Shown here: positions 6,633 to 12,875 of the stretch, one piece after another
Numbering within the stretch: the first letter of the stretch is position 1
Layout: the number at the start of each line of letters is the position of its first letter
From: Gloeomargarita lithophora Alchichica-D10
Lineage (GTDB): Bacteria; Cyanobacteriota; Cyanobacteriia; Gloeomargaritales; Gloeomargaritaceae
NCBI RefSeq assembly: GCF_001870225.1
Contig: NZ_CP017675.1
Coordinates: forward strand, 1,173,756 to 1,237,755
Length of the DNA: 64,000 nt
Reading direction: 5' to 3'
Notes under the pieces: generated by a model
The model's database searches: none
The model's input: the letters and a program-made list of their open reading frames with translations, nothing else
What the model was told of the DNA's origin: nothing
Position numbers and translations under genes: made by a program

Positions 6633-9735
<3,103 letters not shown>

Positions 9736-9742
<7 letters not shown>

Positions 9743-11199
9743 GGTCTGTCCCCCGCCAAAACCCAGGTATCTTTACTGCCGCCCCCTTGGGAGGAATTGA
9801 CTACTAAAGAGCCTTTTTTCAAAGCGACCCGAGTTAATCCCCCAGGATGGACATAAACTTCTTGCCCATATAAAATGTAGGGACGCAAATCCACATGACG
9901 ACCCTCAAAATGATCCCCGATAATGGTAGGTACGCGCGATAAAGAAAGGGTGGGTTGGGCGATAAAATTGCGGGGAAAGTTTTGGATTTTTGTAGCAAAA
10001 TTAACTCGTTCTTCCGGGGTAGCCGTTTTGCCCATGAGCATCCCATATCCCCCGGATTCGTTCGCCGCTTTGACGACCAATTCATCCAGATGATTTAAGA
10101 CATATTCCCGGTCGGATGGCCGCCAACATAAATAGGTCGGCACATTCCCCAAAATTGGTTCCGCATCCAAATAGTAGCGAATCATATCGGGCACATAGGC
10201 ATAAACCACCTTATCGTCAGCCACGCCCGTGCCGGGGGCATTGGCCAGTGCCACTTTCCCTTGACGATAGACCTCCATAATGCCAGGAATCCCCAGCAGA
10301 GAATCCGGGTTAAATACCTGCGAGTCAAGAAATAGATCATCCACCCGTCGGTAAATCACATCCACCCGTTTCAATCCGCGGGTTGTCCGCATTTGTACAT
10401 AGCCATCCACCACCACCAAATCGCTACCCTCCACCAATTCCACGCCCATTTGTTGCGCCAAAAAAGAATGTTCAAAATAGGCGGAATTATAAACCCCCGG
10501 CGTTAATACCACCACACAGGGATGATCCAGATAAGGCGGGGCAAGATTTAATAAAGTTTCTAACAAATGCCCTGGGTAATCATCCGTGGGACAAATATCC
10601 AACATCCGAAACACTTTCGGAAAAGTATTTTTCATCACCCGGCGATTTTCTAACACATAGGATACCCCCGAAGGCACCCGCAAATTGTCCTCCAAAACCA
10701 ACCAATTTCCCTGGCGGTCACGCACCAAATCACTGCCGGTAATATGACACCAAATCCCCCCCGGCGGCGACAAGCCTTGACAAGCAGACAAATAGCCCTG
10801 GGAAGAAGCAATCACATCCGGGGGAATCACCCCATCTTTGCTGATTTTTTGCTCATGGTAAATATCTTGTAAAAATAAATTTAACGCTTCAATCCGTTGT
10901 TTTAAGCCCCGTTCTAGGTATGCCCATTCCTGGGCGGCCACCACCCGTGGAATCACATCAAACGGCCAAATTCGTTCCTTTTGTGACGGGTCGCTATACA
11001 CTTGAAACGTCACCCCCGTCTGCATCAAAACCGCTTGGGCGGCCTGCTGTCGCTGTTGCAATTCTCCCGGCGAAAATTGGTTAATGCGAGCCACTAATGC
11101 CCTGACTTCCAGACGGGGTTCCCCCGCTTGAATAAACCATTCATCGTAAAATTCTGACGGGTCGTAGTGGTTAAAATCCACGGCGAAAACCGCTCCCAT
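9736..11199 (-). CDS. Circularly permuted type 2 ATP-grasp protein (DUF404/DUF407)
   Basis: At 487 residues this has the usual length. Recognisable stretches are HYDPSEFYDEWF near the N terminus, RIWPFDVIPRV, the DNLRVPSGVSYVLENR loop, ANAPGTGVADDK (nucleotide-binding end), and VVKAANESGGYGMLMG followed by AQPTLSLSRVP. These match the circularly permuted ATP-grasp family, presumed peptide or amide ligases. The gene is followed by the alpha-E gene with a seven-base overlap. The start at ATG 11199 agrees with the family N terminus. The substrate cannot be inferred from the sequence. Confidence 0.9.
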
Positions 11200-11348: not shown

Positions 11349-11678
11349 ATGGTTATCAACCAATTATTGCTGGCGTGGGATAGCTGGTCACGGGAATACT
11401 GTATCGCTATTTGCGGTACTTTTGTCCCCTTGATGTTTCTTTTGACTGGGGCAACGGTGCTGGGGCTATGGTTTCCCTTCCCCCGGCGTTGGATGACCCT
11501 CACGGCTAGTCTGGCGGGGGGTTGTGGCCTGCTGTTGTGCCTACACGTCCTGTCCTGGTTTCGCATTGGGGTGGTCCATCCGGTGACCTTTATTCTGGTG
11601 GGGCTGAGCCTGCTGTGTGGGACTGTCAATGCCGGGGCGGTGTGGCGGGGGCGTACCCGGCTTGCCCTCGGTCGGTAA
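11349..11678 (+). CDS. Small three-helix membrane protein, unknown function
   Basis: The frame encodes 109 residues with three likely membrane helices: about 20-42 (IAICGTFVPLMFLLTGATVLGL), 49-70 (TLTASLAGGCGLLLCLHVL) and 77-98. It ends in a basic tail (RGRTRLALGR), which suggests a cytoplasmic C terminus. I recognise no family. The gene is divergent from the ATP-grasp gene, sharing a 149-bp upstream region, and lies 42 bp before the papain-like protease on the same strand, so they could share a transcript. Support for being a real gene is the clean hydrophobic pattern and lack of any competing frame. Confidence 0.6.
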   Translation: MVINQLLLAWDSWSREYCIAICGTFVPLMFLLTGATVLGLWFPFPRRWMTLTASLAGGCGLLLCLHVLSWFRIGVVHPVTFILVGLSLLCGTVNAGAVWRGRTRLALGR

Positions 11679-11720: not shown

Positions 11721-12875
11721 ATGATGTCCTTCCGTTCTACCGCCTACCGTTTGGGTGGTTATATTGCCGCCCGCAAGCCGGTCGAGGCGAAAAAACACCA
11801 GATTGGTGCCTACCAGCAGGCGCAGTTGCCGCCCAAGGTGGATTTGCGCCCTTGGATGACGACGGTGGAATCCCAGGTGGGGAATAGTTGCGTTGCCAAT
11901 GCGTTTGTGGGTGCCTACGAGTATTTGGCGAAGCAAGCTTTGGGGGATGCGGGGGATGTCAGCCGGTTGTTTGTGTATTACAATGCCCGTTGCCAGGATG
12001 GGGATGACATCGCTGACCGGGGGACGCAGATGATTTCAGCGATTCAAGCCCTGGTTGAGTATGGAGCCTGCACTGAAAGCACCTGGCCGAATGATGAGAC
12101 ATTACTTTGTGATGAACCCCACGGGGATGCCTACACCGAAGCGGAGCGGTTCAAAATTGTGGAGGCGGAGCAAATCGAAACGGATTTAGACCACTGGCGC
12201 CACACCTTGGCGGAGGGTTATCCGATTGCCTTTGCCCTAAATACCTTTGAATCCTTTGATGAGGCCACCCGCAATCGGGGGCGCATTCCCCTACCCAAAG
12301 CCTCGGATAATGTGCGAGAAACCCACGGTTGGCACGCCATGTTGTGCGTGGGATATTCGGACAAAGACCAGATGTTTATTGTGCGAAATTCCTGGGGTGC
12401 GGAGTGGGGGGATCAGGGGTATTGTTATCTTCCCTATAAGTATGTGATTCATCCTGAGTTTAACGGCCATGATTCCTGGATTATCAAATCGGTTACTGAC
12501 CTGGAGTTTAGCCCGGACAATTGGGGGGATGATGAATCTTTTTTTGCGGACGATGATGAATTGTTGCTGTTTGATTTTTATATCGTCACGGACGAGCCGG
12601 AGGAATTTATCGAAGATTTAGACGGACTATGTGGTGATTATGCCGATGAGGATGATGAAAGTTATTATTTTGACTACGAGTATGAGGAAAACGAAGAAGG
12701 GGAAGGTTATGTGCTAACCATTAGCAATTTTTCCCTGACGATTTATGAACCGGATGAATTTTTGGAAGAATTAGACGAACTATGCGAAGAATATGCCCTG
12801 GATGGGGATTATGATTACACCATTGATGGGGAGGAAGAGGAGGAAGAAGAAGACGAAGAAGCAGAGGAAGCGTGA
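11721..12875 (+). CDS. Papain-like cysteine protease with repeated acidic tail
   Basis: Residues 35-260 form a C1-type peptidase domain. The nucleophile Cys57 lies in NSCVANAF, the catalytic His205 in THGWHAMLCVGY and the Asn223 in VRNSWGAEWG. The nearest Gln (Q52) is five rather than six residues before the Cys, so the oxyanion hole is slightly unusual. No signal peptide or clear propeptide is seen, suggesting a cytoplasmic enzyme. Residues 262-384 are extremely rich in Asp and Glu. They contain two related units (about 283-320 and 332-369) sharing the pattern EPxEF, E-x-LD-x-LC and a trailing Tyr/Asp-rich part, and end in a run of Glu. Such a tail could bind divalent cations or a basic partner, which is inference. 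Start chosen at ATG 11721, with AGGAA upstream; an adjacent in-frame ATG at 11724 is equally possible. Confidence 0.8.
   Translation: MMSFRSTAYRLGGYIAARKPVEAKKHQIGAYQQAQLPPKVDLRPWMTTVESQVGNSCVANAFVGAYEYLAKQALGDAGDVSRLFVYYNARCQDGDDIADRGTQMISAIQALVEYGACTESTWPNDETLLCDEPHGDAYTEAERFKIVEAEQIETDLDHWRHTLAEGYPIAFALNTFESFDEATRNRGRIPLPKASDNVRETHGWHAMLCVGYSDKDQMFIVRNSWGAEWGDQGYCYLPYKYVIHPEFNGHDSWIIKSVTDLEFSPDNWGDDESFFADDDELLLFDFYIVTDEPEEFIEDLDGLCGDYADEDDESYYFDYEYEENEEGEGYVLTISNFSLTIYEPDEFLEELDELCEEYALDGDYDYTIDGEEEEEEEDEEAEEA

What the first reader, a model, noticed from the sequence alone, without database searches (positions are those of the whole stretch)
11721..12875. Papain-like protease with a duplicated, extremely acidic C-terminal tail
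The peptidase core has Cys57, His205 and Asn223. It is followed by about 120 residues of which a large share is Asp, Glu or Tyr, in two related units each with an EPxEF and LDxLC pattern and ending in poly-Glu. The protein appears cytoplasmic. A protease joined to a polyanion-like, possibly cation-binding tail is not an architecture I know in cyanobacteria. The tail could localise the enzyme, inhibit it, or tie its activity to Ca2+ or another ion.
Basis: partly seen in the sequence, partly recalled or inferred. Interest (0 to 1): 0.62.

Follow-up and report, generated by a model that had tools for sequence, protein, structure and literature searches.

The report
Bacterial papain-like protease with acidic domain
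A cell-internal relative of papain in this cyanobacterium carries at its end a small, extremely acidic folded domain that no tested family library describes; it recurs in several cyanobacteria and in one family of another bacterial phylum, which makes it a modest but real new variant of a well-known enzyme.

Summary
The ORF, catalytic residues and acidic, internally repeated tail are real. The tail is not a floppy polyanion. Residues 278-370 are predicted with good confidence (full-length model 77-95 pLDDT in ten-residue blocks; domain-alone model 84) to form one beta-alpha-beta-beta-alpha-beta domain (ferredoxin-like order), and the "duplicated units" are its two halves. Only the last 14 residues are poly-Glu.

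The domain is under purifying selection (dN/dS 0.04, core 0.07). It matches no Pfam or NCBIfam family above cut-off. All 36 genomes with a held locus have it behind a C1 core: 33 intact fusions, 2 cut by contig ends, 1 split by an insertion. It is common in one Bacteroidota family (33 strong hits in 222 genomes) and sporadic in cyanobacteria, whose copies nest inside the Bacteroidota ones.

In a wider clade of related C1 peptidases 44 of 44 tails are strongly acidic (net -36 to -114) although the attached fold differs; 20 of 20 outgroup tails are near neutral. I read the tail as a polyanionic docking module. Calcium binding is unsupported (no EF-hand in 33 of 33).

The parts
11721..12875 (+). 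C1A (papain-like) peptidase with acidic C-terminal domain, 384 aa
   Evidence: ORF; Pfam PF00112 E 5.3e-12, 46.7 bits against cut-off 20.7; PDB 3ois E 2.9e-36
11721..11825 (+). N-terminal segment, residues 1-35, net +5, conserved GGY motif; position of a possible pro-segment (inference)
   Evidence: G13 and Y14 invariant in 28 of 28
11826..12494 (+). papain-fold catalytic core, residues 36-258; Gln52, Cys57 (11889-11891), His205 (12333-12335), Asn223 (12387-12389)
   Evidence: 91 of 223 core positions invariant in 28 rows (total over residues 36-258)
12495..12551 (+). acidic linker, residues 259-277 (DLEFS...W...SFFAD)
12552..12830 (+). acidic beta-alpha-beta-beta-alpha-beta domain, residues 278-370, net -37, no Lys or Arg
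   Evidence: AlphaFold2; alignments; charge; dN/dS 0.041
12558..12689 (+). first beta-alpha-beta half (E280-290, H293-307, E315-323)
12708..12824 (+). second beta-alpha-beta half (E330-340, H344-358, E364-368)
12831..12872 (+). poly-acidic end, residues 371-384, predicted disordered, variable between relatives (1-86 residues)
   Evidence: (pLDDT under 50)
11349..11678 (+). 109-aa hydrophobic ORF directly upstream, kept with the protease in two relatives of the genus; link unproven
   Evidence: no Pfam hit

Best explanation
A cytosolic, apparently competent C1A peptidase (inferred from its active site and the lack of a signal peptide by eye) is fused to a folded, extremely acidic beta-alpha-beta-beta-alpha-beta domain plus a short poly-Glu end. 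Shown here: the fusion, the predicted fold, its conservation, its single origin in the tree, and that strong negative charge is common to all tails of the wider clade whatever fold is attached. Inferred: the acidic module is an electrostatic docking platform (exosite) that brings basic proteins or peptides to the catalytic domain and so sets what is cut. The poly-Glu end only adds charge and reach.
For: Predicted fold with good confidence. dN/dS of the domain 0.041 and 0.037 in two pairs, near the core's 0.068 and 0.023. Intact fusion in 33 of 36 genomes with a held locus; the other three are contig ends or an insertion split. In the clade 44 of 44 tails are net -36 to -114 whether the module is this domain (33), an unstructured-looking acidic run (6), or a TerB-like or other helical-looking module (5); 20 of 20 outgroup tails lie between -3 and +3. 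Domain net charge -21 to -38 in 33 of 33.
Against: No substrate, partner or activity is known. Shared acidity may serve solubility or intramolecular contact instead. The well-conserved stretch E310, E312, F317, D318, Y319, E320 (each in 25-27 of 28 rows) could mean one specific partner rather than general capture of basic proteins. The core itself is acidic (net -9 to -23 in the 33 fused rows). Gene context is not conserved, so no pathway is suggested. The TerB label in the tree covers 5 rows, of which only 2 have weak, sub-cut-off TerB hits.
Confidence: 0.4

Rival explanations
1. Autoinhibitory latch: the acidic domain folds back and clamps the basic N-terminal segment (or the cleft) so that the enzyme is silent until salt, a basic ligand or cleavage opens it.
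For: N-terminal segment net +3 to +7 in 33 of 33 fused rows, core and tail acidic; GGY motif largely invariant (G13, Y14 in 28 of 28). Recalled, not read: the xylellain structure paper (FEBS Lett 2013) reports an intriguing activation mechanism; only its title was seen, in a reference list.
Against: Outgroup N-termini are also positive on average (+4.9, 12 of 20 rows measured), so the charge is not specific. Three helical-tail relatives have N-segments of -2 to +1. No inter-domain model could be judged: the core was poorly modelled.
Confidence: 0.25
2. Ligand-sensing regulatory domain of the ACT or PII-like kind that binds a small molecule and controls the peptidase.
For: Structural neighbours include ACT domains, NikR, MgtC C-terminal domain and PII (Z about 6.5-8.4), and SbtB (not significant).
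Against: No Foldseek match with E at or below 0.001; the fold is very common; invariant tail residues are hydrophobic or aromatic plus one Ser.
Confidence: 0.15
3. Calcium or other cation sensor.
For: Extreme acidity; no Lys or Arg in the window's tail.
Against: No EF-hand pattern in 33 of 33 tails; no strictly invariant acidic residue in the domain; most members are in Bacteroidota.
Confidence: 0.1
4. The tail is a non-functional low-complexity extension.
For: Plausible for residues 371-384: length 1-86 residues among 33 relatives and no invariant position.
Against: Domain 278-370 has dN/dS near 0.04, invariant positions and good model confidence.
Confidence: 0.04

Closest known systems
Xylellain (Xylella fastidiosa C1A peptidase, PDB 3ois; the link of name to entry is recalled)
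   Same: Best solved relative of the core: E 2.9e-36 over residues 34-258
   Different: The 291-residue chain ends where the core match ends; no acidic domain
C1-terB peptidases (named in PMC10380794, passages read)
   Same: C1A core plus a further module; two relatives here (L019, L079) have sub-cut-off TerB hits and sit next to this group in the tree
   Different: The window protein has no TerB match; its module is a beta-alpha-beta-beta-alpha-beta fold
ACT and PII-like ferredoxin-like domains
   Same: Same order of secondary structure; Z up to about 8
   Different: No family match above cut-off, no significant Foldseek E-value, extreme acidity
Calpain-type calcium-dependent cysteine peptidases
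   Same: Cysteine peptidase with an additional regulatory module (recalled)
   Different: No EF-hands here; Pfam assigns the core to C1 and lists no C2 match

Membership tests
Papain family C1A | Pfam PF00112 match above the curated cut-off | tested here: met
   46.7 bits against 20.7
Papain family C1A | Gln, Cys, His, Asn active site | tested here: met
   Q52, C57, H205, N223, invariant in 28 of 28 rows
Papain family C1A | peptidase activity | not testable with these tools
   needs an enzyme assay
Xylellain-like short C1A | closest solved relative is xylellain | tested here: met
   3ois E 2.9e-36; next best 1.6e-05
Xylellain-like short C1A | no extra C-terminal module | tested here: not met
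   126 residues beyond the core
C1-terB peptidases | TerB domain (PF05099) | tested here: not met
   no PF05099 match at E up to 1 in the full protein or the tail alone
Ferredoxin-like fold | beta-alpha-beta-beta-alpha-beta order | tested here: met
Ferredoxin-like fold | significant match to a solved member | tested here: inconclusive
   VIA-align Z up to 8.9 with 86 aligned at 3.0 A, but best Foldseek E 0.02
ACT or PII-like regulatory domains | sequence or structure match standing out from other ferredoxin-like folds | tested here: inconclusive
   tied with many unrelated folds; no Pfam match to them
EF-hand calcium-binding proteins | EF-hand loop pattern | tested here: not met

The most novel reading that the evidence does not exclude
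A clade of bacterial cytosolic papain-like peptidases uses exchangeable polyanionic modules (this new fold, TerB-like and other helical folds, or plain acidic runs) as an electrostatic reader: a nucleic-acid-like surface that captures basic proteins, such as orphan ribosomal or nucleoid proteins, for proteolysis.
Probability: 0.14. Interest if true: 0.68.

Novelty: new variant of a known kind. Interest (0 to 1): 0.4.

Why it matters
It defines a protein domain that the tested libraries do not list and shows that a clade of bacterial papain-like enzymes carries strongly acidic tails on different scaffolds. [quoted passage not shown]

Tried and rejected
Weak Pfam hits of the tail (DUF553, Pol_alpha_B_N and others) were rejected: below cut-off and inconsistent. 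Weak PDB sequence hits (E 0.33 and above) and the weak profile hits L018 and L070-L073 (E 0.002-0.009) and G601 (7.5e-4) were treated as chance or unresolved; L018 is another protein by its sequence, the others were not read. The PADLOC hit of one relative (SspF, E 0.0029, 14 bits) was rejected as likely driven by composition. Operon partners: none conserved across 20 fetched neighbourhoods; in 3 of them (L057, L068, L069) my script found no protease call, so 17 were read. No viral-contig relative of the domain by tblastn. Viral fold search: 0 matches at E 0.001. Plasmid and phage searches: no place covers 80% of the query. A biomineral link (I suspect from memory of genome size that this is Gloeomargarita lithophora, unverified) has no support: most members are Bacteroidota, and only 3 of 7 genus genomes carry the gene, one of them broken.

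Dropped rows: the tree used 28 of 33 fused rows (5 near-copies left out) and 9 of 20 outgroup rows, chosen by hand. L022 (copy of L013) and L031 (contig end) were left out of counts. In one search two N-termini (L049, L019) were trimmed by hand to the likely start, and the core end of L019 was misplaced by the aligner, so its tail charge is understated.

Full report
Observation. The ORF at 11721-12875 is real: 384 aa, ATG start. Pfam assigns the core to Peptidase_C1 (46.7 bits, cut-off 20.7); the best solved relative is 3ois, a cysteine protease (xylellain, name recalled), E 2.9e-36 over residues 34-258. Cys57, His205 and Asn223 are present, with Gln52 and Trp225, and all five are invariant in 28 relatives. 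The 126 residues after the core are 44% Asp+Glu without a single Lys or Arg. No other of the 45 called ORFs of 150 aa or more in the window comes near this charge over 93 residues (-45 against -18).

Anatomy. The two "units" are related: local alignment score 84 against a maximum of 60 in 2000 shuffles. AlphaFold2 with four rows modelled the core poorly (pLDDT under 50, shallow alignment), but gave residues 281-370 ten-residue block means of 77-95 and the order strand-helix-strand-strand-helix-strand. The domain alone gave mean pLDDT 84.3 and pTM 0.75 with the same order. The duplication is thus the two beta-alpha-beta halves of one domain of ferredoxin-like order; "ferredoxin-like" names the fold, not an iron-sulphur protein. 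Invariant tail positions are F296, L300, L303, Y307 in the first helix and F347, L351, L354 in the second, plus S273, F275 and F337, which looks mostly like a hydrophobic core. Residues 371-384 are predicted disordered; the same end varies from 1 to 86 residues in 33 relatives.

Selection. By a simple Nei-Gojobori count, dN/dS of the domain is 0.041 between the window and G002 (core 0.068) and 0.037 between Arcicella and G451 (core 0.023); two more distant pairs are saturated and gave no ratio.

Fold comparison. VIA-align gives Z up to 8.9 against designed ferredoxin folds, the MgtC C-terminal domain (8.4), ACT-type and NikR proteins, the 50 listed rows lying between 6.5 and 8.9. Foldseek finds no PDB or viral match at E 0.001. 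The fold is common and points to no function. No sequence family matches in Pfam above cut-off or NCBIfam at E 0.1, nor in PDB sequences at E below 0.33.

Distribution. With the domain profile: 4 of 386 sampled genomes of the phylum, 3 strong; 34 of 222 genomes of the family of Arcicella aurantiaca, 33 strong; 6 of 345 sampled genomes of that phylum, 2 strong. With the whole protein, 9 of 39 genomes of the relatives search match, the window's own included and some by the core alone. Named members are Cyanobacteria bacterium FACHB-471, Arcicella aurantiaca and an Emticicia MAG. Of 36 distinct genomes with a held locus, 33 have the complete fusion; two are cut by contig ends, and in G004 the gene is split by an insertion of about 1 kb with a transposase-like ORF. 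A free-standing domain was not seen. Within the genus the protease lies beside an ATP-grasp and alpha-E pair (names by recall); 6 of 7 genomes keep the ATP-grasp gene. G001 and G003 lack both the protease and its small hydrophobic neighbour at that place, and G005 has the neighbour without the protease. It is an accessory gene.

Clade. The wider set shows a clade of C1 peptidases, mostly without a signal sequence by eye, with acidic tails. In the tree of 48 cores the tailed clade is one side of a branch (98/95) and the ferredoxin-like group has one origin (100/99). The five cyanobacterial fused rows form one clade (100/99) nested among Bacteroidota rows (99/95), which suggests transfer from Bacteroidota to cyanobacteria, though the root is a midpoint drawing. 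Tail net charges are -36 to -114 in 44 of 44 tailed rows and -3 to +3 in 20 of 20 outgroup rows. The modules differ: this domain (33 rows), acidic runs (6), helical-looking modules (5; two with sub-cut-off TerB hits, three with no family). "C1-terB" peptidases are already named in PMC10380794 (passages read).

Mechanism. That strong acidity persists while the scaffold changes argues that charge is the selected property, which fits an electrostatic exosite for basic substrates. A latch on the basic N-terminal segment is the main rival; that segment is net +3 to +7 in 33 of 33 fused rows, but outgroup N-termini are positive on average too (12 of 20 measured). Calcium sensing has no support beyond acidity. 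Nothing biochemical was tested.

Novelty. Five paper searches listed nothing that I recognised from titles and abstract starts as describing this domain; I opened only PMC10380794 and PMC12090721 (passages). The library lacks most subscription papers, so absence from print is not shown.

Noticed in passing
L005:2100-3300 (genome G004): A close relative of the window gene is interrupted by an insertion of about 1 kb with transposase-like ORFs, while both pieces otherwise stay about 85% identical to the window protein: probably a recent break, so the gene seems dispensable there.
   Followed up: partly
window 8771-11199, minus strand: An ATP-grasp-like and alpha-E-like gene pair (names recalled) lies divergently upstream; 6 of 7 genus genomes keep the ATP-grasp gene, with or without the protease.
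   Followed up: partly
window 11349-11678: A 109-aa hydrophobic ORF with no Pfam match sits directly upstream of the protease; in G005 it persists without the protease.
   Followed up: partly
L019:3953-5362 (Deinococcus sp. KNUC1210 plasmid): A related C1 peptidase with a TerB-like module ends in about ten near-perfect EEDID repeats.
   Followed up: no
genomes G049 and G077: Some distant genomes of the phylum carry six C1 peptidase matches each; the copies read (L087, L089) have signal- or lipoprotein-like stretches near the N-terminus and no acidic tail.
   Followed up: no
L013, L021, L041 C-termini: In many Bacteroidota members the poly-Glu end is capped by a short basic cluster such as KKRK or KRKRR.
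   Followed up: no
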